From Alicyclobacillus shizuokensis NBRC 103103 (GTDB lineage Bacteria > Bacillota > Bacilli > Alicyclobacillales > Alicyclobacillaceae): 64,000 nt of DNA. Every line of letters begins with the position of its first letter. Position 1 is the first letter of the stretch. Shown one piece after another: positions 2,706-20,873 of this stretch. The stretch is from assembly GCF_001552255.1 (NCBI RefSeq), contig NZ_BCQV01000004.1, positions 1 to 64,000 on the forward strand, read 5' to 3'. The notes below the pieces were generated by a model that was not told the DNA's origin, did not search any database, and saw only the letters and a program-made list of their open reading frames with translations. Made by a program: the position numbers and the translations under genes.

Positions 2706-3842
2706 ATGCATTTACGAATACGCCGAAACCTGGCCGGCCGCAGGCTGAGATGGGACCTCGCAGCAACTGCCTTTCTCGGTGCCAGCGCGCTGGCCGTCAA
2801 CACCGCGCTGGCTGCCGGCCAGCCGGGCGGGGCGCCCGGTGCCTCGCTCCCGTTTGCTGTCACCCCCGTCCTCAACGGGCAGCAGGTTCACGGGGTGACC
2901 GGGTATTTCGATGTTCACGTCCGGCCGGGGCAGACCCTGCGCCTGCAGATGCAGGTGCACAACCTCACGCGCCAGCCGGTGACTGTCAAGGCGGCGTCCG
3001 CCAATGGCCTGACCATGGCCAACGGGGGCGTCGAGTATGTCCCACAAACCCAACTTGCGGGATCGCGGCTGCTTGACCACTCGTTCGCGTTGGCCAGCCG
3101 CATCTCTCTGCCCGCCAGCATTCGCCTGCCGGCGAGTGGGAGCGTTCGCGTGCCGATTGAGGTGAAGGTGCCCAACGTCGATGCCGGGACGTATCTGGGC
3201 GGTGTGGTGTTCAGCGCGTCCGGGGCCAGCACAGAGAGCACGGCGCGGGTTGCCGGAAACCAGACGGCCATCATCATTCAGAACCGCTTCAACATGGCGG
3301 TTGCGATAGCGTTGAACTTGCCGCACACCGTCTCTCCGCGGTTCGCCTTCGGCCGCGCGGATGTGGCGCCGGTCTCCACCGGCGAGCAGCTGCGGATTGG
3401 CATGAGCAACCAGGCGGCGGCGGTGTTGAAGGGGCTCACTGGCAGGTATGCGCTGGTGAACGAAAACGGGGATACGGTTCAAGCGGGATCGTTTGGGCCC
3501 TTCACGATGGCTCCGAAAACGGCCATCACCTATCCGGTGCCGCTCCAGGCGATGCCGCCGGCGGGCAGGTACACGCTCCGGCTGACCGCCCATGCTGCCG
3601 GAAGAACGGTGGCCGCCACCCGGCCGCTGACCATTGGTCAGCCGCAGGAACAAGCGTACCACGAGGCCACCGGGAAGCCGGCGCCGCGAGCCTCGCGCTC
3701 CTGGTGGCAATATGGGGCGGCGGGGCTGGTGCTGGTCCTCGTGGCGGCGGGTGTGTTCCTGTGGCGCACGGCCAAACGCAGGGCGATTGCAGCGTATGAG
3801 CGGCAACAACGCCAGGACCGCCAGCAGGGCGGTCGACCATAG
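2706..3842 (+). CDS. DUF916/DUF3324-like WxL partner, membrane-anchored cell-wall protein
   Basis: 378 residues. The start at ATG 2706 is chosen because GGAG at 2693-2696 is 9 nt upstream; ATG 2700 is in frame but too close. An N-terminal signal peptide ends near ALAAG. Next is an Ig-like domain typical of DUF916 (FDVHVRPGQTLRLQMQVHNLT, then FSASG), then a DUF3324-like domain, and a C-terminal membrane helix from about residue 333 followed by a basic tail (WRTAKRR). In known WxL clusters this protein holds WxL proteins at the cell surface. The gene directly follows the WxL gene. The domain call rests on architecture and pairing. Confidence 0.8.
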   Translation: MHLRIRRNLAGRRLRWDLAATAFLGASALAVNTALAAGQPGGAPGASLPFAVTPVLNGQQVHGVTGYFDVHVRPGQTLRLQMQVHNLTRQPVTVKAASANGLTMANGGVEYVPQTQLAGSRLLDHSFALASRISLPASIRLPASGSVRVPIEVKVPNVDAGTYLGGVVFSASGASTESTARVAGNQTAIIIQNRFNMAVAIALNLPHTVSPRFAFGRADVAPVSTGEQLRIGMSNQAAAVLKGLTGRYALVNENGDTVQAGSFGPFTMAPKTAITYPVPLQAMPPAGRYTLRLTAHAAGRTVAATRPLTIGQPQEQAYHEATGKPAPRASRSWWQYGAAGLVLVLVAAGVFLWRTAKRRAIAAYERQQRQDRQQGGRP

Positions 3843-9848: not shown

Positions 9849-9889
9849 AGCTTCCCTAGCGTTCCTTGCGACAACAGGTGCTGTCCCAT

Positions 9890-9920
9890 AGGCGGCCGAT
9901 CCGCGCGGCCGCCTGTTCTT
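9890..9920 (+). terminator. Terminator-like hairpin after the SDR gene
   Basis: A perfect 9-bp stem (9890-9898 with 9906-9914), 7-nt loop, followed by GTTCTTTGCC, a weak T tract. Confidence 0.55.
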
Positions 9921-9951: not shown

Positions 9952-10027
9952 CTCCACAAAATCTCCACACCGACTCCACAACTGTCCATACTCCTTCCAA
10001 CACTCCTGCGGGTGGGGTTGCTAGACT
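9952..10027 (+). promoter_or_regulatory. Three CTCCACA repeats at 11-bp pitch before the comA operon
   Basis: CTCCACA occurs at 9952, 9963 and 9974. The same register continues more weakly with CCATAC (9986) and CCAACA (9997). Read as TCCACA, each of the three is one base from the Pho half-site TTCACA. A possible -10, TAGACT, is at 10022-10027. Just downstream, complementary 8-mers at 10033-10040 and 10067-10074 could form a hairpin at the transcript's 5' end that encloses the leader ORF's ribosome site. Confidence 0.45.
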
Positions 10028-10062
10028 TAAAAACACATAACCCATGCGTGGAGGGCGTTCCC

Positions 10063-10137
10063 ATGCTTATGTGTGTTTCTGCCATTGGGAATGGAGAACG
10101 GCGCCTACACGGCGCGCTGGACGGTCTTCTGGGCTAA
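10063..10137 (+). CDS. Possible 24-residue leader peptide
   Basis: A short ORF with a strong ribosome site (GGAGGG at 10050-10055, 7 nt before ATG 10063) and a stop 36 bp before the MFS start. It begins Met-Leu-Met-Cys, so it has sulfur amino acids at positions 1, 3 and 4. It sits in a leader that can fold around its own start. A role as an attenuator or coupling peptide for the comA operon is inference from position and the ribosome site only. Confidence 0.35.
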   Translation: MLMCVSAIGNGERRLHGALDGLLG

Positions 10138-10173
10138 CGCGGCGTGAATCTGCCTCTAGGAGGGTCCCTTTTT

Positions 10174-11622
10174 ATGACATCGTCAGCTAGGCTTGGTCCG
10201 TCGTCGCGGGCCGGTATCCCGGAACGCATGGAGCGGCTGCCGATGACCCGGTTCACCGGGATGGTGGTGCTGCTCTCGGGCCTTGCGTGGTTCATTGAGT
10301 CGCTCAGTATCGGATCGCTTGGGGTCGCGCTCGATCCGCTCAAACAAGTGATGCACCTGTCGGCGGGCCAGGTGGGCGTGCTCACGGCGGCCTCCACCTT
10401 CGGCATCGTGTTGGGCCTGATACCCGCCGGGTTTCTGGCGGACAAGTTCGGCCGGAAACAGATGTTGGTATGGGGGATTTTGGAGTACAGCCTGTTCACC
10501 TTGCTCTGCGCATTTAGCCCCAACTACGGGGTGCTTTTGTTGTTTCGCTTCTTGTCCGGCTTCGGCATGGGTGCGGTCTTCCCGCTGCCGTATGCGATAG
10601 TCAGCGAGTTTGTCCCGAGCACGCGGCGGGCTTGGTTCAACGGTCTGTTGGATGCCTGCCTGTCTGTAGGGTACTTTATCGCGCCCCTGTTGGGACTGGT
10701 CATTTTGCCGCGGTTTGACTTGGCGATGTCCTGGCGGGTTTTCTTTGCGGTGTCCGCCCTGCCGATGCTGTACGCCTACGTCATTCACCGGATGCTCCCG
10801 GAATCCCCGCGGTGGCTGGAGCGCAAAGGACGGCTGCAGGAGGCGGAAGCGCTGATGCGCTCCATTGAGGAGCGCGTGGAGCGTCTGACCGGGCAGCCGC
10901 TGCCCGCTCCCGTAGCTGCCGGGGTGGGCGAAGACGCCGAGGCAGAAGCCATATCGGCTCAAGGCTCGGGTGCGAATCCGGGGCCGGGTGGCCGCTTGAG
11001 CGCCGGAATCCTGGCGCCCTGGCGACCGCCGTATGTGCGCCGCACCGTGGCGCGGGCGGCCTCGGCCATCGGCACCTTCTATATGTTTTACATCGTGATG
11101 ACCTATATGCCCACTTTATTCGTCTCGCAGGGGTTGTCGTTCGCGCATTCGCTCGAGTTTACGGCCATCATCACGGCCGCCGCCATCCCGGGCAAGCTCC
11201 TCAACGGCTGGATGGCCGAGTGGCTGGGCCGCAAGTGGGTCTATGTCCTGTTCATGGGCGTGGCCGGGGTGGCCTCGTTGTTCTTTGGGCTGGCCCGCTC
11301 CGCCGTCGGGATGGTCACATTCGCCTGCGTGATGTCCCTGTTTGGGACGGGCGCGTTCCCGGCGCTGAAGATGTCGTACGCGGAGCAGTATCCGACGCAC
11401 CTGCGGACCACCGGCGCTGCTACGGTCGAGACGCTGGGACGGTTCTTCGGCGGCGTGGTGGGCTCCTACGCGATGCCGGTCATCCTCCAGTCGGCCGGCA
11501 TGGCGGTCGGGTTTTACATTGTGGCCGCGGTGGCGTTGTGCGCCGTAGTGATTGAACTGGTGTTGGCACCGGAGACCAAGGCGCTCACGCTGGAGCAGCT
11601 GGAGGCCCGGTTGGCGCACTAG
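10174..11622 (+). CDS. MFS transporter, metabolite:H+ symporter type
   Basis: 482 residues from ATG 10174 (AGGAGGG, 9-nt gap). Twelve membrane helices, with MFS loop motifs ADKFGRKQM after TM2 and PESPRWLERKGR after TM6, and the repeat-half motif AEWLGRKWV. The long central loop is acidic and glycine-rich (about residues 245-285). It belongs to the sugar/aromatic-acid/NiaP branch of MFS. It is the first full gene of a five-gene run (transporter, acyltransferase-3, ligase, comA, VOC), so it may move the product or precursor of that pathway. Direction and substrate are unknown. Confidence 0.85.
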   Translation: MTSSARLGPSSRAGIPERMERLPMTRFTGMVVLLSGLAWFIESLSIGSLGVALDPLKQVMHLSAGQVGVLTAASTFGIVLGLIPAGFLADKFGRKQMLVWGILEYSLFTLLCAFSPNYGVLLLFRFLSGFGMGAVFPLPYAIVSEFVPSTRRAWFNGLLDACLSVGYFIAPLLGLVILPRFDLAMSWRVFFAVSALPMLYAYVIHRMLPESPRWLERKGRLQEAEALMRSIEERVERLTGQPLPAPVAAGVGEDAEAEAISAQGSGANPGPGGRLSAGILAPWRPPYVRRTVARAASAIGTFYMFYIVMTYMPTLFVSQGLSFAHSLEFTAIITAAAIPGKLLNGWMAEWLGRKWVYVLFMGVAGVASLFFGLARSAVGMVTFACVMSLFGTGAFPALKMSYAEQYPTHLRTTGAATVETLGRFFGGVVGSYAMPVILQSAGMAVGFYIVAAVALCAVVIELVLAPETKALTLEQLEARLAH

Positions 11623-11651
11623 TTGGCTGAGCGTGCAAGGAGGTCGCACAG

Positions 11652-12830
11652 TTGGCCCAGAAAAAAGTTCACCTTTATGAAATCGACCTAATGCGCGCGT
11701 TTATCATGCTCGGCGTCCTGTCGGTACACACGGTCACGGTTTACGCGTCAAGACTGCGGGACGGGACCATCGCCTTTCTGTCGGTAGCCGCGGTTCACTC
11801 GTCGATGCACTTCACGCGTGAATCGTTCATGTTTATCACCGGCCTCGTGCTGTTCGTCACCTATTACCGGCGGCCCTTTCATACCCTCAAGTTCTGGTGG
11901 AAGCGGCTGACTCTGATTGCCGTGCCGTACGTGGTGTGGAACATCGCCTACATCCTGTACGGGCGCGACTACGGGGGGACGTTCGGTTCATTTCTCGCCA
12001 AGCTGGGCCATTCCTTGGAGGTGGGAGATCAGGGCTATGTGTACTATGTCCTGGTGTCCATTCAATTGTACATTGTCTTTCCCATCCTGCTTTATGGACT
12101 ACGCTGGCTGGAGCGCTGGCACGCGCACATCCTTGTCGGCAGCTTCATCTTCCAACTGGCGTTGATGGGGTTTTACCATTACGTGCTGATTCACATCGAC
12201 TATCAGCATCAATGGCCGTATCTGTTGGCGCGCATCGCCGATCGCTACGGGACGTTTGTGCTGACCTACCAGTTTTGGTTTGTGGCCGGCGGCGTCCTGG
12301 CCTGCCACTATGATCGCGTCAAGGCGTACGTAGAATCTCACGTGGCGCTGTTGCGTTGGCTACTCGTCATCGGGGTGCTCGCCATGTGGGCGCAGTATTT
12401 CTTTGAACGGTTTGTGCTCGGGTATTCGGACTCTCACGCCGAGTTGGCCGAGACGCCGCTCATGATTCCGTACGCCCTGGTGGTCACGGCCAACATGTGG
12501 CAGTTGGGCATGGCGTGGGCGAAGCGGCGCACCCGGCCCGGGTGGCAGCCGTTCAGCCGATTTGTCATGCTCGCTTCGTCAACATCGTTCGGGATCTTTT
12601 TGTTCCAACCGTTCCCGCTCGCCCTTCTGTGGCACGTTGTGCCACACCTGAGCACACCGAGCTGGGTGACCTACGGATCGCTCCCGTTTGCGATTCTGTT
12701 TGTCTACTTCTCGGGCATGCTGGTAGCCTACCTGATTGGCAAGGTGCCCTACGTGGCCTATTGCGTCGGTCGCAAGGTGCAGTGGCGGGTCAACAAGCCA
12801 CGGCCCGACGCGGCATCGACCAGCGCCTGA
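11652..12830 (+). CDS. Acyltransferase-3 family membrane protein
   Basis: 392 residues from TTG 11652 with AAGGAGG 8 nt upstream. About ten helices. The N-terminus carries the family's Arg/His motif (LMRAFIMLGVLSVHT, invariant Arg15 and His26 region) and ESFMFITGLVLF, typical of integral-membrane acyltransferases that O-acylate sugars, lipids or cell-wall polymers. It starts 29 bp after the MFS gene and 94 bp before the ligase gene, so it is probably co-transcribed. The acyl donor and acceptor are unknown. Together with the ligase and ComA it suggests esterification of a sulfonated product. Confidence 0.85.
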   Translation: MAQKKVHLYEIDLMRAFIMLGVLSVHTVTVYASRLRDGTIAFLSVAAVHSSMHFTRESFMFITGLVLFVTYYRRPFHTLKFWWKRLTLIAVPYVVWNIAYILYGRDYGGTFGSFLAKLGHSLEVGDQGYVYYVLVSIQLYIVFPILLYGLRWLERWHAHILVGSFIFQLALMGFYHYVLIHIDYQHQWPYLLARIADRYGTFVLTYQFWFVAGGVLACHYDRVKAYVESHVALLRWLLVIGVLAMWAQYFFERFVLGYSDSHAELAETPLMIPYALVVTANMWQLGMAWAKRRTRPGWQPFSRFVMLASSTSFGIFLFQPFPLALLWHVVPHLSTPSWVTYGSLPFAILFVYFSGMLVAYLIGKVPYVAYCVGRKVQWRVNKPRPDAASTSA

Positions 12831-12924
12831 GGCAGCGTAAGGGAGAGCGTCAAGCTTTGGGCGCGACTGTACACCGTCTTGGATGGAGAGGTACTGGATT
12901 GAGACAGGAAAGGAGTTCTTCGTG

Positions 12925-14565
12925 ATGTCCCAGTTGATCGAACGCCTGTTCGCGGCACCGTTTGACGGCGATGCGCCATGTCTGTGTTTCGCCGGGCGCT
13001 GGTACAGGCGGCGCGAGTTGCTGGCCGAGGCCGAGACCCTGGCTGCGCACATGAGCCAAGCCGGCGTCCAGCCGGGCCAGCGGGTGATTTTGGGAGTGCC
13101 CAACTCGGCCGCCTTTGCCATCGCCTGGCTGGCGCTTATCCGGATGGGGGCGGTGGCTGCTCCCTGCAACCCGGACATGCCGGTTGCCGAACTGCTCGTG
13201 TTTCTCAACCGCTGCCAGGCGGCGGCCGCGGTGTTGCGACCGGAGCAGTGGCAGGCGCTGCAAGCGAGTGCGTCTATCCCAAAGAGCCTGACGCGCGTGT
13301 GGTTGGTCGAGGACGTGGCTCAGCCCCAGCCTGCACGATATCTCCTGCGGGGGCGGGATGGGGGCTGGTCCGAGGCAGCAGACGCCCTCGCACAGAGGGA
13401 GGCAGCCAGTGCGTCCAGCCAGGGCGAGGCCATGCCGGGGGCAGCCGGAATACTGCCGGATCTGGCCGACATCTCCGATGAGGCGCAGGGCGTTCTCCTT
13501 TACACTTCCGGCACGACCGGCGTGCCGAAGGCGGTCGGCCTGCGCCACCGGCATCTGTTGGCGACCGCCGACAACGTCATCGTCTCGCACCAGTTGACGG
13601 AGCGGGATGTGACCTACTGTTTCCTGCCGCTGTTTCACATCAATGCGCAGGTGATCGCGTTTTTGGCGACGCTGCTCTCGGGCGGGCGCATCGTATTGGC
13701 GCCCAAATTCAGTGCGTCCTCGTTCTGGCCGCAGGTGGAGGAGTACGGGGTGACGTGGGTGTCAGCGGTGCCGACCATCATCGCTATCCTGCTGAAGAAG
13801 CCGCGTCCAGAGCGCATCCCACCCCACCTGCGCTTTGTAAGGTCCGCTTCCGCTCCGCTGCCTGTGCTCGACGCGATGCGGTTTGAGCGCCGCTTTGGCA
13901 TCCCCATCATCCAGTCGTACGGCATGACGGAGGCGGCCAGCCAAATCTGCGTCAATCCGCTGCCCCCGGGGGAGCGTCGGTTGGGATCGGTGGGGCTGCC
14001 GGTGGGGCTGGAGCTGATGGTGGTGGACGACGACAACCGGCCGCTGCCGCGCGGGCAGGCGGGTGAAATTGTCATCCGCGGCGCCAGCGTGATTGAGGCG
14101 TATGAAGGCTTGGACAGTCCAAAGGATTTTGCCGGTGGTTGGTTCCATACTGGCGACCTGGGGTACCAGGACGAGGACGGCTATGTGTTTCTCACAGGCC
14201 GCAAGAAAGAGATGATCAACCGCGCTGGCGAGAAGATCAGCCCGTACGAGGTGGAGAATGTCATCCGCGAACACCCGCGGGTGCGCCAGGTGGGCGTCAT
14301 TGGCCTCCCGGATCCCCTGTATGGGGAGCGGGTGACCGCCTGCGTCGTGAGCGATGCGCCGCCGGCGGAACGGGACGGGGTTGCAAGCGAGATTCTAAAG
14401 CTGTGTCAATCGTCGCTGTCGCGTTACAAGTGGCCGGCCGAGGTGCTGTTTGTCGACGCTATTCCGGTCGGGCCGACCGGCAAGGTACAGCGGACGCGGC
14501 TGAAGCAAGAGTTGCTCGAAGGGGAGCGGGTTCCGGCGGATTCGGAGAGGAGGTCGATGCCGTGA
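12925..14565 (+). CDS. AMP-dependent acyl-CoA synthetase/ligase
   Basis: 546 residues from ATG 12925 (AAAGGAG upstream). ANL-superfamily motifs in order: LLYTSGTTGVPKAV (ATP loop), QSYGMTEA, WFHTGDLGYQDEDGYVFLTGRKKEMI (hinge), INRAGEKISPYEVE and the C-terminal catalytic Lys in PVGPTGKVQR. The enzyme adenylates a carboxylic acid and passes it to CoA or another acceptor. Its last four bases overlap the GTG start of comA, so the two are translationally coupled. That makes a carboxylate linked to the sulfolactate pathway a plausible substrate; this is inference. Confidence 0.9.
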   Translation: MSQLIERLFAAPFDGDAPCLCFAGRWYRRRELLAEAETLAAHMSQAGVQPGQRVILGVPNSAAFAIAWLALIRMGAVAAPCNPDMPVAELLVFLNRCQAAAAVLRPEQWQALQASASIPKSLTRVWLVEDVAQPQPARYLLRGRDGGWSEAADALAQREAASASSQGEAMPGAAGILPDLADISDEAQGVLLYTSGTTGVPKAVGLRHRHLLATADNVIVSHQLTERDVTYCFLPLFHINAQVIAFLATLLSGGRIVLAPKFSASSFWPQVEEYGVTWVSAVPTIIAILLKKPRPERIPPHLRFVRSASAPLPVLDAMRFERRFGIPIIQSYGMTEAASQICVNPLPPGERRLGSVGLPVGLELMVVDDDNRPLPRGQAGEIVIRGASVIEAYEGLDSPKDFAGGWFHTGDLGYQDEDGYVFLTGRKKEMINRAGEKISPYEVENVIREHPRVRQVGVIGLPDPLYGERVTACVVSDAPPAERDGVASEILKLCQSSLSRYKWPAEVLFVDAIPVGPTGKVQRTRLKQELLEGERVPADSERRSMP

Positions 14566-15326
14566 ACGCGGCTGAATTGACGCTGCCGGAGCGGGCCAGC
14601 AAGCCTCGCTCCCGTGGTCTCACCCTGTTGATTGACAATGGCGTTCCCCTGCACCACTTTCAGGACGTCGTCGAGAGTTTTGACGGGTTCATCGACTTCG
14701 TCAAGTTCGGTTGGGGCACCTCCGTCATCACCAAGCACCTGACGGACAAGATCCGATGTTTGGAGGAACACGATATCGGCTGGTTTTTTGGCGGCACGTT
14801 GTTTGAGAAGTACGTCTACCAGGGCAAATTGGCCGAATACCGTCGATACCTCCGTCAGCACGGCGGGCGCTACGTCGAGATTTCCAACGGGACCATCGAC
14901 CTGTCGAATGCGGAGAAGGCCCAGTACATCCGCGAGTTTTCCAGCGAGTTCACGGTATTCAGCGAGGTGGGCTTCAAGGATGGCGAGAAGTCTATCCACC
15001 TTTCCCCGGCGCGCTGGATTGAGTACATTCAGGAGGACCTGGCGGCGGGCGCCTTTAAGGTCATCACCGAGGCCAGGGAAAGTGGCACCAGCGGAATCTG
15101 CCGCAGCAACGGCGAGGTCCGGTACGGCCTGATTGAGGAGATTGCCGATTCGGGCATCGATCTCGACAAGGTGGTCTTCGAAGCCCCCAACAAGACCTTG
15201 CAGACCTACTTCATCCGCCTCTTTGGCACCAACGTCAACCTGGGCAACGTCGCCTTTGACGATGCGGTGGCGCTGGAGACCCTGCGCCTGGGCCTGCGTT
15301 CCGACACGCTGCTGCAGTTTTCCTGA
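14562..15326 (+). CDS. comA: Phosphosulfolactate synthase (ComA/YitD family)
   Basis: 254 residues from GTG 14562 (GGAGAGGAGG upstream). The TIM-barrel family adds sulfite to phosphoenolpyruvate to give (2R)-phospho-3-sulfolactate. It is the first step of coenzyme M synthesis in methanogens and of 3-sulfolactate accumulation in Bacillus spores. Seen here: GLTLLIDNGVP at the N-terminus, DFVKFGWGTS, GGTLFEKY, VEISNGTIDLS, FTVFSEVGFKD and KVITEARESGTSGI, all conserved family stretches. No ComB phosphatase or ComC dehydrogenase gene lies nearby. The neighbours are a coupled ligase upstream and a VOC protein downstream, which is not the archaeal context. Confidence 0.9.
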   Translation: MNAAELTLPERASKPRSRGLTLLIDNGVPLHHFQDVVESFDGFIDFVKFGWGTSVITKHLTDKIRCLEEHDIGWFFGGTLFEKYVYQGKLAEYRRYLRQHGGRYVEISNGTIDLSNAEKAQYIREFSSEFTVFSEVGFKDGEKSIHLSPARWIEYIQEDLAAGAFKVITEARESGTSGICRSNGEVRYGLIEEIADSGIDLDKVVFEAPNKTLQTYFIRLFGTNVNLGNVAFDDAVALETLRLGLRSDTLLQFS

Positions 15327-15432
15327 ACGGAGCCGCGCGGAGGCCGGGGCGTTGTCGTTGACAGGCGGTGCGCCCGCAAACAGGGTTTTGCCCGGGAAAT
15401 TCAGACAATCCTCGACAAAGGAGGCGTTGCCC

Positions 15433-15831
15433 ATGCGCAACCCGAACAACGTGTTTCACCTCGCCATACCCTGCCGCGACTTGGACGAAGCGTACGAGTT
15501 TTACGTGAAGGGGCTCGGGTGCAAGCTGGCCCGCCGCTACCACGACCGCATCACCTTGGACTTTTTCGGCGATCAGGTGGTCTGCCACCTGTCCGACGCC
15601 TGGGAGCGCGATCCGAAGATGTATCCGCGCCATTTTGGCGTTACGTTTTCGGACAAGCGGGAGTTCGATAACCTGCTGCGACTGGCCAAGATGCGTGACT
15701 TGCCTTTCTTCCAGCCGCCCTCGAAGCGCTTTGAGGGCCTCGTCGAGGAGCATGAGACGTTCTTTCTGAAGGATCCCTCCAACAACCTCCTGGAATTCAA
15801 ATATTACCTGGATGAGCGGATGATGTATTGA
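15433..15831 (+). CDS. VOC (glyoxalase/dioxygenase-fold) protein
   Basis: 132 residues from ATG 15433 (AAAGGAGGC upstream). The VOC fold is indicated by FHLAIPCRDLDEAYEFYVKGLGCKL at the N-terminus and FLKDPSNNLLEFKYY at the C-terminus. His9 and the final Glu of LLEFKYY match usual metal-ligand positions. Family members include glyoxalases, epimerases, dioxygenases and resistance proteins. Position 106 bp after comA and before a terminator suggests it acts on the operon's product; the reaction is unknown. Confidence 0.8.
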   Translation: MRNPNNVFHLAIPCRDLDEAYEFYVKGLGCKLARRYHDRITLDFFGDQVVCHLSDAWERDPKMYPRHFGVTFSDKREFDNLLRLAKMRDLPFFQPPSKRFEGLVEEHETFFLKDPSNNLLEFKYYLDERMMY

Positions 15832-15847
15832 CGGCATCCCGCAGTCT

Positions 15848-15885
15848 GACCCGGCCCGGCACAGCAACGCCGGACCGGGTCTTCA
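15848..15885 (+). terminator. Strong hairpin ending the comA operon
   Basis: A 13-bp stem with one G-U pair (15848-15860 with 15869-15881) and an 8-nt loop. The T tract is poor (TTCAT). Confidence 0.6.
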
Positions 15886-15943: not shown

Positions 15944-16025
15944 GAGATAGGATCATGAGGCCTAGGAGTCGGCCAAGCCATTTCCATCAGGCCATGGATG
16001 AAGCGGCTTTCCGGGAGGGATGCGC

Positions 16026-16844
16026 GTGACCAGGCAAGAGGACGGTCTCCCGCAGGGCCATCATGTCGAGTCCGCACCCGCACGGGGGGAGAGGGCACAG
16101 CCCCTGCCGGGGGAAGAGCGGGCTTCCCCGTCGGCTGGGGCTCGCATCTTCCTCGTCGAGGACGACGACAAGTTGGCAGCGCTTATCATGCGTCGGCTCG
16201 CTGGGTACGGATACTGTGTACGGCAGGCGGCCGATTTCAACCGGGTCGCCGATGAGGCCGCCGCGTTTCAGCCCCACCTGGTCATACTCGACGTAAACCT
16301 GCCGCGTTACGACGGCTTTCACTGGTGCCGAGAACTGCGCCGCTTCTCGCGTGTGCCGATTCTGTTCTTGTCGGCGCGCACGGGCGACATGGACAAGGTG
16401 CTGGCGTTGGAGCAGGGGGCGGACGACTACCTGACCAAGCCGTTTCACCCAGATGTGTTGACGGCGAAGGTCAAGGCGTTGCTGCGCCGCGCCTATGGCG
16501 ACTACGCACAGGCGGCCGAGACCCAAGCGGCGCTGGTATGGGGCGGCTTCGTCCTCGACGTGCGCAGGTCCGTCTTGGCCCTCGGCGGCGAGCGGGTGAC
16601 CTTGTCCAACACAGAACGGGAGATTTTACGCTTACTGTTGCAACGCCAGGGCGATATTGTCACGCGGGAGGAACTGTTGGAGGCGGTGTGGGATGAGGCG
16701 GATTTTGTCGAGGACAACACGCTGACCGTCAACATCGCGCGCATTCGGGTCAAGCTGGCCGCCGCTGGGGCGCCGCGGGTGTTGGAGACGGTACGCGGCG
16801 TGGGCTACCGCCTGCGGCCGCTGGCCGAGGGGGTGGCGGAGTGA
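16026..16844 (+). CDS. BceR-like response regulator (OmpR family)
   Basis: 272 residues from GTG 16026, with GGGAGG 7 nt upstream (ATG 16020 is too close to that site). About 38 poorly conserved residues precede the receiver domain (IFLVEDDDKLAALI, phosphoacceptor Asp in VILDVNLPRYDG, then FLSART and DDYLTKPF). A winged-helix DNA-binding domain follows (LSNTEREILRLLLQRQG, NTLTVNIARIRVKL, VRGVGYRL). It overlaps the kinase gene by 4 bp and is followed by a Bce-type ABC transporter. This is the usual sensing and resistance module against cell-wall-active peptides. Its target is probably the operator at 17993. Confidence 0.9.
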   Translation: MTRQEDGLPQGHHVESAPARGERAQPLPGEERASPSAGARIFLVEDDDKLAALIMRRLAGYGYCVRQAADFNRVADEAAAFQPHLVILDVNLPRYDGFHWCRELRRFSRVPILFLSARTGDMDKVLALEQGADDYLTKPFHPDVLTAKVKALLRRAYGDYAQAAETQAALVWGGFVLDVRRSVLALGGERVTLSNTEREILRLLLQRQGDIVTREELLEAVWDEADFVEDNTLTVNIARIRVKLAAAGAPRVLETVRGVGYRLRPLAEGVAE

Positions 16845-18007
16845 GGCTGCGCGACTATGTTCTCGACCTCGGCCGCCTTCTCTCCCTGGCCTGCCTGGGG
16901 CTGGGTCTGTTTGTGTTGGTCGTCGTGCTCTCGCTGCAAAGCCGAGGGCTGGCGGTGCCGTGGGCGGACTTATTGTACGGCTGCCTGCTGGCGGCGCTGG
17001 CCACCGCCGCCGGCGTCCTCTGGGAGGTGTGGGTCCGCATACCTCAGGGGCGTGCGCTCGCGGCGCGGCGAGCGGCCCTCGAACAAGGCGGCGCCCAGCC
17101 GCGGATGCGGCTGGTGGGCACGCGTGAGCAGCGGGCATGGGCCGCCCTCGTCAACGCGGAGTACGCCCACAACCTGCGCGAGCGGTACGAATCCGAGCGG
17201 CAGACCAAGTTCTACGAGGCGTTCGTCACCCGTTTTGCCCACCAGATGAAGACTCCGCTGGCGGTGATGACCCTGTTGTTGGCAGAATTGCGGGAATCGG
17301 TCGCCGCGGGTAACGCAGGCCCCGCAACGGACGCGGGGCAGGGCGGAAAGGCGGGCGGCAACCGGAACGTGAAGGCGGCAGGCGTGGCGCCGCTGCTCGA
17401 CAGCCTGCTTGAGGAGAAGGAACGGTTGGAGGCCAGCCTGGAACAACTCCTTCAGACCGCCCGCGTCACCTCATTCCGTTTCGACGCCCGGCCCGAGCGG
17501 GTGGACGTGGTGCCACTCCTGCGCGAGGTGGTGAACGAGCACAAATCCGCCTGGATACGCCGCCACCTGTATCCACGCATCGATGCCGAAGCGCCCACTG
17601 TGTACGCGTGGACGGATGGCAAATGGCTGCGCTTCATCGCCGAGCAGTTGGTGCGAAACGCGCTCCAATACGGCGTTCCTCCCGGGACGGATGCGGGCTG
17701 TCCCTTCGTTATCCGCGTTCGCCGTCGCGGCGGGGATGTGGTGCTGGCGTTTTGCGATCAGGGCATCGGCATCCCGCAGGCGGACCTGCCGCGCCTCTTC
17801 CAGCCGTTTTTCACCGGTGCCAATGGGCGCCTGCATTCTCGTGCCACCGGGATCGGCCTGTACCTGGTCAAGGAGGTGTGTGAGCGCCTCGGTCACGACA
17901 TCCAGGTGTGTTCCACTGCGGGGCAAGGCACCACCTTCACCCTCACCCTGCACGACTCGACCCACCTGTCCCCTGCCGCGTTATCGGACGACCTTACAAA
18001 ACTGTAA
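16841..18007 (+). CDS. BceS-like sensor histidine kinase
   Basis: 388 residues from GTG 16841, coupled to the regulator gene. Two N-terminal membrane helices (about 13-34 and 44-62) are separated by a very short loop. This is the intramembrane-sensing layout, in which the signal comes from the ABC transporter rather than from an extracellular domain. The H-box is FAHQMKTPLAVM; the ATPase domain has an N-box region (IAEQLVRNALQYG), FCDQGIGIP and ATGIGLYLVKEV. The stop codon lies inside the operator at 17993-18008. Confidence 0.9.
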   Translation: MRLRDYVLDLGRLLSLACLGLGLFVLVVVLSLQSRGLAVPWADLLYGCLLAALATAAGVLWEVWVRIPQGRALAARRAALEQGGAQPRMRLVGTREQRAWAALVNAEYAHNLRERYESERQTKFYEAFVTRFAHQMKTPLAVMTLLLAELRESVAAGNAGPATDAGQGGKAGGNRNVKAAGVAPLLDSLLEEKERLEASLEQLLQTARVTSFRFDARPERVDVVPLLREVVNEHKSAWIRRHLYPRIDAEAPTVYAWTDGKWLRFIAEQLVRNALQYGVPPGTDAGCPFVIRVRRRGGDVVLAFCDQGIGIPQADLPRLFQPFFTGANGRLHSRATGIGLYLVKEVCERLGHDIQVCSTAGQGTTFTLTLHDSTHLSPAALSDDLTKL

Positions 18008-18008
18008 G
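17993..18008 (+). promoter_or_regulatory. BceR-type operator for the ABC genes
   Basis: TTACA-N4-TGTAA with flanking C/G, a perfect inverted repeat. As I recall it, the published motif for Bce-type regulators is TnACA-N4-TGTAA, which fits exactly. A degenerate second copy (CTGTAAG...CTGTTAAGG) follows within 35 bp. The site is 89 bp before the ATPase gene. Confidence 0.65.
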
Positions 18009-18096
18009 TTTGGCGGGAGCGACTGTAAGCTTCCTGTTAAGGTTTGCCCGGGTCCGTTCTGGCACACTGGCGGTAGGATGAAAGGAGGCCGGGGCG

Positions 18097-18855
18097 ATGC
18101 AAGTCCTTGAAATTGTCCATTTGACCAAGGTGTACCAAGGCCGGCGCGGGCAGGTGGCGGTCCGGGCGCTCGACGGCATGGACCTGTCGGTGGCCAGGGG
18201 TGAGTTCGTGAGCATCATGGGGCCCTCAGGCAGCGGCAAGACCACCCTGCTCAACATTCTCGCCGGGCTGGACCGACAAACCGGCGGCGAGTGCTGGATT
18301 GACGGCCGCGAGCTGTCGACCATGAGCAATGAAGAACTGGCGGTGTTCCGACGGCAGAAGCTGGGGTTTGTCTTTCAGGATTTCAACCTGATCGACACCC
18401 TCACTCTGGCGGAAAACGTCGCCCTGCCGCTCGCCCTCGACGGCGCGCGTGGGGCGCGTCTCTACGAACGCGTCGTGTCGGTGATGGCGGACCTCGGCTT
18501 GGACGCCGTCGGCGACAAGTACCCGTACGAGGTGTCCGGCGGCCAGCAGCAGCGGGCTGCGGTCGCTCGCGCCGTCGTGCACGAGCCGGCGCTGCTGTTG
18601 GCGGACGAACCGACCGGCAACCTCGACTCCGCCTCCGCCCAGGCTCTGCTGGAGCTGTTCCGGGCGTTGAACCGGCGGCGGCAGGCCACATTGCTGATGG
18701 TCACGCATGATCCCTTCTCGGCCAGCTACGCGGACCGGGTTGTGTTCATCAAGGACGGGCGAGTACACAGTGAACTGGTGCGCAACGGCGGCCGGGAGGC
18801 GTTCTTTCAGGACATCCTGAGCGGGCTGGCGGTGCTGGAGGGGGCGCGGGCATGA
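18097..18855 (+). CDS. BceA-like ABC transporter ATPase
   Basis: 252 residues from ATG 18097 (AAAGGAGGC upstream). Walker [11 protein letters not shown]-loop [10 protein letters not shown], signature [14 protein letters not shown], Walker [13 protein letters not shown] and H-loop MVTHDP are all intact. It belongs to the MacB/LolD/BceA class. It overlaps the permease gene by 4 bp. With that permease it would free lipid II-cycle intermediates from antimicrobial peptides and signal to the kinase. Confidence 0.92.
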
Positions 18856-20873
18856 GCTGGTTTCGTCTGTTGGTGAAAAACAGCCTGCGCACCATCCCGC
18901 GCTACCTCGGTTTCTTCCTGGCCGGTGCGATGGCTGTAGCGGTTTACATGCTGTTTGCCTGCTTCATCGGCAACCCGAGCGTCATCCACGGCACCATGCC
19001 GGGAGACGCGCGCGGCGTCCTGCGTCTGTGCCAAGGCATTGTCGTCGTCTTCTCTGTGTTCTTTGTCGTCTTCTTCCACGCTGCGCTGCTGCGGTTGCAA
19101 AGCCGTGAGTTTGGCCTGCTGTTGGTGCTTGGCGTGCGCCCGCGCCAACTGGCGCTGCTGGTGTTTGTGGAGAGTCTGTTGCTGGGCGCCGCCGCGCTGG
19201 CGCTAGGCGGCGTACTGGGTCTGTTGTTCCTGCGGCTGTTCCTGATGGCCATCACAGCGGCCCTCGCACTGCCGCCGGTGCCGTTTGCGGTCCCCAGCTC
19301 GGCCTTGCTGAGCACCTTTTTGGGTTTTGGGTTGCTGTTTGCCGCGGACGGGCTTTGGCAGGCGTTGCGCACGGCGCGGCGGATGCCGCGAGCGCTCATC
19401 CTGGGCGGGCGGGTGCACCAGCGGGAGCCGCAGGCGGCGCCGTTCAAGGTGGTGTTGGCCCTTTTGTGTCTGGCCGCCGGCTACACAATGGCCATCCGCT
19501 TCCCCCACGCTGTCATGGTGACGATGGTCCCGGTTCTGGTGTTGGTCATCTTCGGCACGTTGCTGTTGTTCAGCCAGGTGTCCGTATACGTCCTGCGCCG
19601 TCTGCGCCGCCCGGCGATGGGCGGAATCACCTGGCTGACGTCCGCCCGTCTCATCCATCGGATTCGCGATCACGCCCGCATCCTGACGGTGATCACGACC
19701 TTATCGGCCGTGGTCATGACGGCGATGGGTGCCGTGGTGAGTTTTGCCCAGTTGAATGCATCGAATTCAGAACGCCTGGCTCCGTTTGCGGTCCAGGTGA
19801 CCGCGCCGGTGGGCGCGAAGACGTTGTGGCAGAGTGTGGGTGCCTCCGACCTGCGGCAGTCCGGGTTGTCGGTCTCGCAAACCGTGCAGGTGACGGTGCT
19901 CACAGTCGAGGTGAGCGATCCCTCCGGGAGCGGTCAGTCGGTTACAAAGACGGGCGGATCGACTCCAATGACGGGCGCCAGCGGGGACGCCTCAGCGCTG
20001 AAGGCGATGGTCATCTCCGACACGGGCTATCACCGCCTGCGAGAAGCATTGCTCGCCAGCCATCCCAGCCTGGCGCCAACCATCCCCGATTTTTCGCTGG
20101 CCGGCAATCAGGCGGAGTGGGTGGTGCCGTATCCGTACATAGTGCCGCGCATGTTTCAAAGCGGACGTGCTGTGGTGCGGTTGGGCGGGCAGGAGTACGC
20201 GGTGCGCATCCAGGGACAGAGCGACACCCGGGCCTGGAACGAGCAGCAGGAAATCGACCGGGCGCTCATCGTTTCGGACGCGCGCTTCCAGGCGTGGGCG
20301 GCCGCCGCAAACCCGGCGGGGCAGTGGCGGATAGCGGCCGCCACGGCCACGAATTGGCGGAAGAGCACGGATATCCTGCGCCACCTGCGGGCGGGGCTGC
20401 CCGCGGCGGACCGGTGGTGGGTGACGGGAACGGTGGAGATGTACACATCGGGGATGCAGCTGTTCTCGACCAGCTTGTTCGCCGGGTTCTTTGTCAGCGC
20501 CCTGTTCTTCCTGGCCTGCGTCAGCACGCTGTACTTCCGCCTCTCGGCCGGGCGCGAGGAGGATGTGCGCCAACTGCGCGCCCTTTTGCGCATCGGCGTG
20601 CGCAGGCGGGAAGTCGGGCGCCTCATCAGCGTGGAAATGGCCTGCCTGTTCTTTGCCCCCCTGGTGTTGGCGTTGTCGCACACCCTGGTGGCGATGGTGG
20701 AGTTCTCCCGGTTGGTAAGCATGGGATGGTTCAGTTGGCGGGATGTCGCTCTGGTGGCGCTGATATACGTTGCCTTCTGCGCCTTGTTCTTCCTTGTCAC
20801 CCGCTGGGTTTACCTGAACGACGTCTTGCGGCAAGCGGGCTGGCAGGACGAAGCGGCGCCGCCGGCGGCGTGA
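18852..20873 (+). CDS. BceB-like ABC transporter permease (FtsX family)
   Basis: 673 residues from ATG 18852. Ten membrane helices are expected, with the family's large extracellular domain of roughly 220 residues between TM7 and TM8 (about 310-530, polar, Ser/Gly-rich). FtsX-type segments include [20 protein letters not shown] near the N-terminus and [32 protein letters not shown] near the C-terminus. The long extracellular domain is what marks BceB permeases and reads the peptide signal. Length fits the family. Confidence 0.9.

What the first reader, a model, noticed from the sequence alone, without database searches (positions are those of the whole stretch)
9952..15885. Operon joining transporter, acyltransferase-3, acyl ligase, phosphosulfolactate synthase and VOC protein
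comA is translationally coupled (4-bp overlap) to an AMP-forming ligase and lies in one run with a membrane acyltransferase, an MFS transporter and a VOC protein. ComB and ComC are absent. Known ComA pathways give coenzyme M or spore sulfolactate; neither needs a ligase, acyltransferase and transporter. Inference: the cluster makes and exports (or membrane-inserts) an acylated or amide-linked sulfolactate compound, perhaps a new sulfonolipid or sulfonated surface molecule.
Basis: partly seen in the sequence, partly recalled or inferred. Interest (0 to 1): 0.75.

Follow-up and report, generated by a model that had tools for sequence, protein, structure and literature searches.

The report
Sulfonate and surface-acylation genes, joined operon
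In a heat- and acid-loving bacterium, genes for making a sulfur-containing acid and genes for decorating the cell surface sit in one operon, and in related species the same two gene sets lie apart but carry the same DNA switch, which suggests that they act in one stress response even though they probably make separate products.

Summary
The five genes are real. MFS, acyltransferase-3 (AT3), AMP ligase, comA and VOC run in one direction, with a 4-bp ligase/comA overlap kept in 3 of 3 genomes of the genus. They are two separately conserved units. (1) comA-VOC descends from a comB-comA-VOC sulfolactate operon still present in order-level relatives and Bacillaceae; this genome has no ComB. (2) MFS-AT3-ligase, usually with an SGNH hydrolase, occurs in 31 of 41 family genomes, 10 of them without this type of comA. 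One of these, G036, has no ComA at all, yet its ligase has the same active-site signature. In the neighbouring genus a box, TTCAA-N6-TTCAA-N11-TAnnnT (about 7 sites per genome), precedes 13 of 13 comA-VOC units and 14 of 15 AT3-ligase units, mostly unlinked, but 0 of 15 other comA genes. Other box genes include sqdB (this genome), htrA and a sulfotransferase. The window's operon carries a different 11-bp repeat array. Best reading: one envelope-stress regulon with two outputs. Products and regulator are unproven.

The parts
9888..9916 (+). terminator-like hairpin that closes the upstream SDR gene
   Evidence: 11-pair stem followed by TCTTT; 9 such sites found in the region against 6.2 expected, so weak alone
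9952..10002 (+). 11-bp phased direct-repeat array (three exact CTCCACA units at 9952, 9963 and 9974, then TCCATA and TCCAAC), a putative response-regulator site
   Evidence: exact pair pattern found twice here; at up to 2 mismatches 3 matches in the window against 0.54 expected; genome-wide exact matches only here and at C37:13232-13260, reversed control 0; array also upstream of MFS in G021 and G022
10174..11622 (+). MFS transporter, nearest to aromatic-acid:H+ symporters (below cut-off)
   Evidence: PF07690 167.5 bits; TIGR00895 197 bits, cut-off 419
11652..12830 (+). membrane acyltransferase-3, with R-X10-H but R-x-x-L in place of RXXR
   Evidence: PF01757 93.4 bits; R15/H26 in 29 of 29 and L88 in 29 of 29 homologous rows
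12883..14565 (+). AMP-forming acyl ligase, oxalyl-CoA-synthetase-like; likely start 12922-12925
   Evidence: PF00501 + PF13193; best solved relatives 6qjz and 5ie0
14562..15326 (+). comA, phosphosulfolactate synthase of the YitD clade
   Evidence: PF02679 283 bits; 1u83 E=1.5e-94; tree and invariant residues
15433..15831 (+). VOC (glyoxalase-fold) protein, constant neighbour of type-A comA
   Evidence: PF00903; 3rri 77% identical; same strand, gap -8 to 125 bp, in 27 of 27 loci that hold both

Best explanation
The operon joins two independently conserved units of one envelope-stress regulon of Alicyclobacillaceae. Unit 1 (MFS, AT3, ligase, and in most relatives a secreted SGNH hydrolase): the ligase activates a small carboxylic acid, perhaps taken up by the MFS, to its CoA ester; the AT3 protein passes the acyl group through the membrane; it is fixed on, or edited from, a cell-surface glycan. 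Unit 2 (comA, VOC): ComA adds sulfite to phosphoenolpyruvate to give phosphosulfolactate, and VOC, a protein with a candidate metal site and many invariant cationic residues, acts on this or its dephosphorylated product. comB, once in the same operon, has been lost. The outputs are probably separate and are switched on together. Shown: gene content, conservation, separability, shared promoter box in relatives, ComA clade and residues. Inferred: all reactions and substrates, that the box is bound by an OmpR-type regulator, that the stress is of the envelope, and that the outputs are separate.
For: Two units: ligase in 31 of 41 family genomes, AT3 beside it in 29 of 31 (one of the other two lies at a contig start), SGNH in 22 of 31, MFS in 19 of 31. 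10 of the 31 lack type-A comA. G036 has MFS-AT3-ligase-SGNH and no ComA. comA-VOC adjacent in 27 of 27 loci holding both; comB-comA-VOC in L005, L123, L124, L125. Co-regulation: box before 13 of 13 type-A comA, 14 of 15 AT3+ligase (the exception starts at a contig end), 8 of 19 other AT3, 0 of 15 type-B comA, 108 boxes in 15 genomes (control 0-1 per genome). It recurs in another genus (G030, both units) and at 1 mismatch before the com operon of two order-level relatives. Envelope character: other box genes include htrA, an HlyD-like adaptor, secreted proteins, sqdB and a sulfotransferase. Same ligase pocket motifs with or without type-A comA. ComA residues and clade.
Against: The window's own operon does not carry the TTCAA box (no site at up to 2 mismatches within 450 bp); it has a different array, so co-regulation in this genus rests on the operon itself. 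The ligase-comA overlap and three separate linkages would be natural if one fed the other. Ligase and type-A comA co-occur more than expected (21 of 22 type-A genomes, Fisher p=0.002; not corrected for kinship). The box was not found before several units (comA of G028, G031, G033, G037; AT3 or MFS of G018, G019, G029, G033, G036, G037, G040). No expression or biochemical data.
Confidence: 0.55

Rival explanations
1. One reading: the ligase activates sulfolactate (or a VOC product of it) and AT3 puts it on a lipid or surface glycan; the MFS exports or imports an intermediate.
For: Ligase/comA overlap in 3 of 3 genomes; three separate physical linkages; shared box; nearly every type-A comA genome has the ligase; AT3 proteins are known to move acidic acyl groups such as succinyl (PMC9558356, passages).
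Against: Ligase-AT3 without type-A comA in 10 of 31 genomes and without any ComA in G036; ligase pocket motifs unchanged; best solved relatives use oxalate; comB-comA-VOC stands alone elsewhere.
Confidence: 0.15
2. Sulfonolipid or anionic-surface programme: the regulon replaces phosphate-bearing envelope parts by sulfonated ones (SqdB sulfoquinovose, ComA sulfolactate, sulfotransferase), with AT3 modifying the same surface.
For: Box before sqdB in G000 and G022 and before a sulfotransferase gene in G004, G008, G014; a PBP_like_2 (PstS-type) gene between VOC and AT3 in G037.
Against: sqdB box seen only in two very close species; no pst gene recognised among the examined box genes; most box genes are general envelope proteins.
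Confidence: 0.1
3. Spore sulfolactate as in B. subtilis yitCD, with the acyl genes as neighbours only.
For: ComA falls in the YitD clade; G616 has the yit-like layout sat/permease/cysH/comB/comA/VOC.
Against: ComB absent; my pattern scan found no mother-cell sigma E/K-like site upstream (27 loci; weak test); the shared box with AT3-ligase and htrA-type genes points to stress control.
Confidence: 0.1
4. Chance adjacency in one genus.
For: The units are unlinked in 14 of the 21 genomes that have both.
Against: Three arrangements and a shared rare box.
Confidence: 0.04

Closest known systems
Bacillus subtilis yitCD / yitBA-yisZ sulfolactate operons
   Same: ComA of the same clade (YitD, 1u83); relatives keep comB beside comA and a divergent sulfate-activation set (L123). 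yitCD is under sigma K/E and sulfolactate is about 5% of spore dry weight (PMC517825, passages).
   Different: A VOC gene follows comA, ComB is missing from the genome, no sigma E/K-like site was found, and comA shares an operon with acylation genes.
AT3/SGNH surface O-acylation systems (OafB, OatA, ExoH)
   Same: AT3 family, R-X10-H motif, SGNH partner gene in 22 of 31 relatives (motifs from PMC9833829, passages).
   Different: Second Arg of RXXR is Leu in 29 of 29; SGNH is a separate gene; a dedicated acyl ligase sits in the operon (the word 'ligase' does not occur in the AT3 review PMC9558356).
Oxalyl-CoA synthetase (AAE3, Pcs60)
   Same: Best solved matches of the ligase; NPLP and GEKISP motifs shared.
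   Different: HVHG is HINA, SCSAS is SASAP; no curated NCBIfam cut-off reached.
Fosfomycin-resistance VOC proteins (FosA, FosX, FosB)
   Same: Among the nearest folds after 3rri (Z 13-14, tied with bleomycin-binding proteins); a candidate metal site and cationic residues that would suit a polyanion (inference).
   Different: 13-20% identity; constant neighbour of comA, no resistance context.

Membership tests
Phosphosulfolactate synthase (ComA) | PF02679 above cut-off | tested here: met
   283 bits, cut-off 25.2
Phosphosulfolactate synthase (ComA) | residues shared by M. jannaschii ComA and YitD kept | tested here: met
   many columns shared by both references are invariant in 27 type-A rows, e.g. 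K48, E82, E135, K139, E170, R172, K211, R242
Phosphosulfolactate synthase (ComA) | archaeal equivalog model TIGR03849 cut-off | tested here: not met
   228 bits, cut-off 280; by its name that model is built for archaea
Phosphosulfolactate synthase (ComA) | forms phosphosulfolactate from PEP and sulfite | not testable with these tools
   needs an enzyme assay
yit-type sulfolactate operon | comB next to comA | tested here: not met
   no PF04029 match in the whole genome; met in L005, L123, L124, L125
yit-type sulfolactate operon | mother-cell sigma E/K promoter | tested here: inconclusive
   regular-expression scan of 27 type-A comA upstream regions gave no sigma E/K site, one loose sigma G-like site in G037; consensus recalled, not fetched
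Acyltransferase-3 surface acylation | PF01757 and R-X10-H | tested here: met
   93.4 bits; R15 and H26 in 29 of 29
Acyltransferase-3 surface acylation | RXXR motif | tested here: not met
   R85-x-x-L88 in 29 of 29, placed by sequence position, not by structure; hence called a variant AT3
Acyltransferase-3 surface acylation | SGNH domain or partner | tested here: not met
   none in the window's operon; separate SGNH gene in 22 of 31 relatives' units and beside an AT3 paralog at C43 of this genome; stand-alone AT3 proteins also exist
Oxalyl-CoA synthetase | oxalate as substrate | not testable with these tools
   only sequence kinship
Pho regulon | box before pst/pho genes | tested here: inconclusive
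   no pst gene recognised among 50 box loci, some sites twice; pst promoters were not fetched

The most novel reading that the evidence does not exclude
Alicyclobacillales run an OmpR-type envelope regulon that couples sulfonate synthesis (ComA-VOC, SqdB, sulfotransferase) to transmembrane acylation, and in this genus the coupling has become a single pathway in which a ComA-VOC product is the acyl group, or its acceptor, of a new sulfonated surface molecule.
Probability: 0.15. Interest if true: 0.8.

Novelty: new variant of a known kind. Interest (0 to 1): 0.52.

Why it matters
It moves ComA of spore formers from the spore to what looks like an envelope-stress regulon, gives a VOC protein of known structure but unknown function (3rri) a partner and a likely substrate class, and shows an AT3 system that brings its own acyl ligase. 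The shared box makes the link testable by RNA-seq in a cultivable species in which the units are unlinked, such as strains like A. acidocaldarius.

Tried and rejected
Spore-sigma promoters: pattern scan found none of the sigma E/K type before comA. Pho control: suggested by a PstS-type gene in G037 and by 11-bp repeats; not supported by the box genes examined. CssR control: the papers found gave no matching motif (passages only). DnaA: the C15 match to the CTCCACA pattern lies upstream of a dnaA-like gene and looks like DnaA boxes (box sequence recalled), so that hit was set aside; whether the window array could bind DnaA is not excluded. Fos-type antibiotic resistance for VOC: the fold is close but ties with other VOC families. 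Phylum scan for VOC: only 2 of 398 genomes at E<=1e-12; class scan 21 of 398 at E<=1e-20, so the pair is narrow in range. ComC was not searched. Literature: searches listed no paper on a comA-VOC pair or on a ligase-AT3-comA cluster; the library lacks most subscription journals. The 1976 paper on a Bacillus acidocaldarius sulfonolipid was seen only as a reference entry; its content was not read.

Rows dropped: one search lists 68 ComA places; one search used 60 fetched regions plus 3 loci. L003 duplicates L053 (same contig). The box census covers the 15 genomes of genus g2 only; the listing was cut off after part of G029. 50 box loci were examined for downstream genes, some of them the same site twice. 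Ligase rows are 33 (best tblastn segment each, some partial).
Full report
WHAT IS THERE. The window belongs to a genome very close to Alicyclobacillus kakegawensis: the whole cluster is 97-100% identical in L003. Between a terminator-like hairpin at 9888-9916 and the non-coding stretch after 15831, five genes run on the + strand: MFS, acyltransferase-3 (AT3), AMP ligase, comA, VOC. The ligase stop and comA start overlap by 4 bp, seen directly in the sequence; the same junction is kept in G021 and G022, so in 3 of 3 genomes of the genus. ComB is absent from the whole genome (the control rings in B. subtilis and M. jannaschii). ComC was not tested.

THREE KINDS OF ComA. PF02679 occurs in 39 of 41 genomes of the family. 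Reading 63 neighbourhoods and a tree of 69 rows shows three kinds. Type A, to which the window's gene belongs, groups with B. subtilis YitD (1u83) and keeps most residues shared by YitD and the methanogen enzyme. Type B is a lone gene, mostly in a divIVA-pyr housekeeping region. Type C sits beside a Mur-ligase-like gene; the copy in this genome (C26) belongs to a branch in which many of these residues are changed. Only type A has VOC: in 27 of 27 loci holding both, VOC follows on the same strand with a gap of -8 to 125 bp (L003 and L053 are the same contig). Two further VOC loci lack comA: G014, where a deletion leaves little of comA beside an intact VOC, and G198. In order-level relatives (G639, G722), in Alkalihalobacillus deserti and in G616 the order is comB-comA-VOC, in G616 with sulfate-activation genes on the other strand, a layout like that of B. 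subtilis yitCD/yitBA-yisZ (PMC517825, passages). So comA-VOC descends from a sulfolactate operon. No intact ComB was found in any type-A genome of the family: 10 of 41 genomes have any PF04029 match, and only G032, with a partial match, is a type-A genome.

THE ACYL UNIT STANDS ALONE. The ligase ortholog occurs in 31 of 41 family genomes, with AT3 beside it in 29, an SGNH hydrolase in 22 and an MFS in 19 of the 31 stretches read. Ten of the 31 genomes lack type-A comA. In G036, which has no ComA match at all, MFS-AT3-ligase stand in the same order as in the window, at 70, 54 and 53% identity, and SGNH follows where comA-VOC stand in the window. Order-level relatives G639 and G722 also have the ligase (58-61% over about 350 residues) with SGNH, and G639 with AT3. 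Motifs around the ligase pocket are essentially the same in 23 sequences from genomes with type-A comA and 10 from genomes without. The nearest solved enzymes are oxalyl-CoA synthetases.

BUT THE LINK IS REAL. Of 21 genomes with both units, 7 have them side by side, in three arrangements: MFS-AT3-ligase-comA-VOC (the window's genus); ligase-MFS-AT3 divergent from SGNH-comA-VOC (G004, G007, G008); comA-VOC-PstS-type-AT3-ligase-SGNH (G037). G030 has a different AT3 directly before comA-VOC. More telling, upstream alignments showed a shared element, TTCAA-N6-TTCAA-N11-TAnnnT, the spacing expected of an OmpR-type activator just before a -10 box (inference). A search of 41 genomes found few exact sites per genome, with 0 or 1 in each direction of the reversed control. 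In the 15 genomes of genus g2, 108 sites fall before 13 of 13 type-A comA genes, 14 of 15 AT3 genes with ligase (the exception begins 63 bases from a contig end), 8 of 19 other AT3 genes and 0 of 15 type-B comA genes. In one 2.8-Mb genome (G005) three of the four sites are these. Both units of G030, in another genus, have it exactly, and the com operons of G639 and G722 with one mismatch. Genomes of one genus are not independent, so no combined probability is given; the per-genome chance for both operons is about 1e-6 (genes per genome estimated from size).

WHAT ELSE IS IN THE REGULON. Among 50 box loci read, some sites twice, Pfam and NCBIfam show in the window's own genome sqdB (UDP-sulfoquinovose synthase: 475 bits to NF041015, cut-off 575; best solved match plant SQD1, 607 bits), htrA and a beta-lactamase-fold protein; elsewhere a sulfotransferase (G004 by Pfam; G008 and G014 by the similar sequence), an HlyD-like adaptor, an A4 peptidase and small secreted proteins. 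This looks like an envelope response with a recurring sulfonate theme. The window's operon itself lacks this box and has instead an 11-bp phased CTCCACA array at 9952-10002, kept in G021 and G022. Its only other exact occurrence in the genome lies at C37, before a MacA-like efflux operon and next to a PhoB-like response regulator and kinase, the natural candidate regulator (inference).

HOW IT PROBABLY WORKS. [quoted passage not shown] The AT3 keeps R-X10-H but has Leu for the second Arg of RXXR in 29 of 29 rows, so it is a variant. Unit 2: phosphosulfolactate from PEP and sulfite; VOC then acts on it. VOC has invariant H9, Q48, H52, H67 and E121, a plausible metal site, and invariant R34, R35, R39, R66, R99, H107 and K123 (29 rows), fitting a doubly charged ligand (inference); after 3rri (77% identity) the Fos proteins are among its nearest folds, tied with bleomycin-binding proteins. 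Whether the two outputs meet in one molecule is open; the separability of unit 1 makes that the less likely reading.

VERDICT. Observation confirmed; interpretation partly supported. A new variant of known kinds: a YitD-clade, ComB-less, VOC-paired sulfonate unit, fused in one genus to a ligase-equipped AT3 surface-acylation unit with which it appears co-regulated elsewhere.

Noticed in passing
L092:5561-7934 (own genome C26): A Mur-ligase-like gene followed by a divergent ComA paralog whose branch has many changed conserved residues; the pair recurs in 17 of the 63 loci read, and a Mn-efflux (MntP) gene was identified between the two in L086. Function unknown.
   Followed up: partly
L213:2273-3421 (own genome C2): SqdB (UDP-sulfoquinovose synthase) in a Bacillota genome, preceded by the TTCAA-N6-TTCAA box.
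   Followed up: partly
L209, L164, L218: Sulfotransferase gene preceded by the same box in G004, G014 and G008 (Pfam run on the G004 copy only).
   Followed up: partly
L203 (site at 3327), L205, L161, L220: Conserved box after an Nramp-like gene, pointing into the 3' end of a uracil-permease-like gene; perhaps an antisense or small RNA promoter (gene names by eye).
   Followed up: no
window 16020-20873: Response regulator, kinase, ABC ATPase and FtsX permease directly after VOC (a Bce-like set); found in A. kakegawensis but not in the stretch read from G021.
   Followed up: partly
L122 (G014): comA largely deleted while VOC and the promoter box stay intact.
   Followed up: yes
window 10029-10078: 12-bp inverted repeat (92% complementary) between the repeat array and the MFS start.
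   Followed up: no
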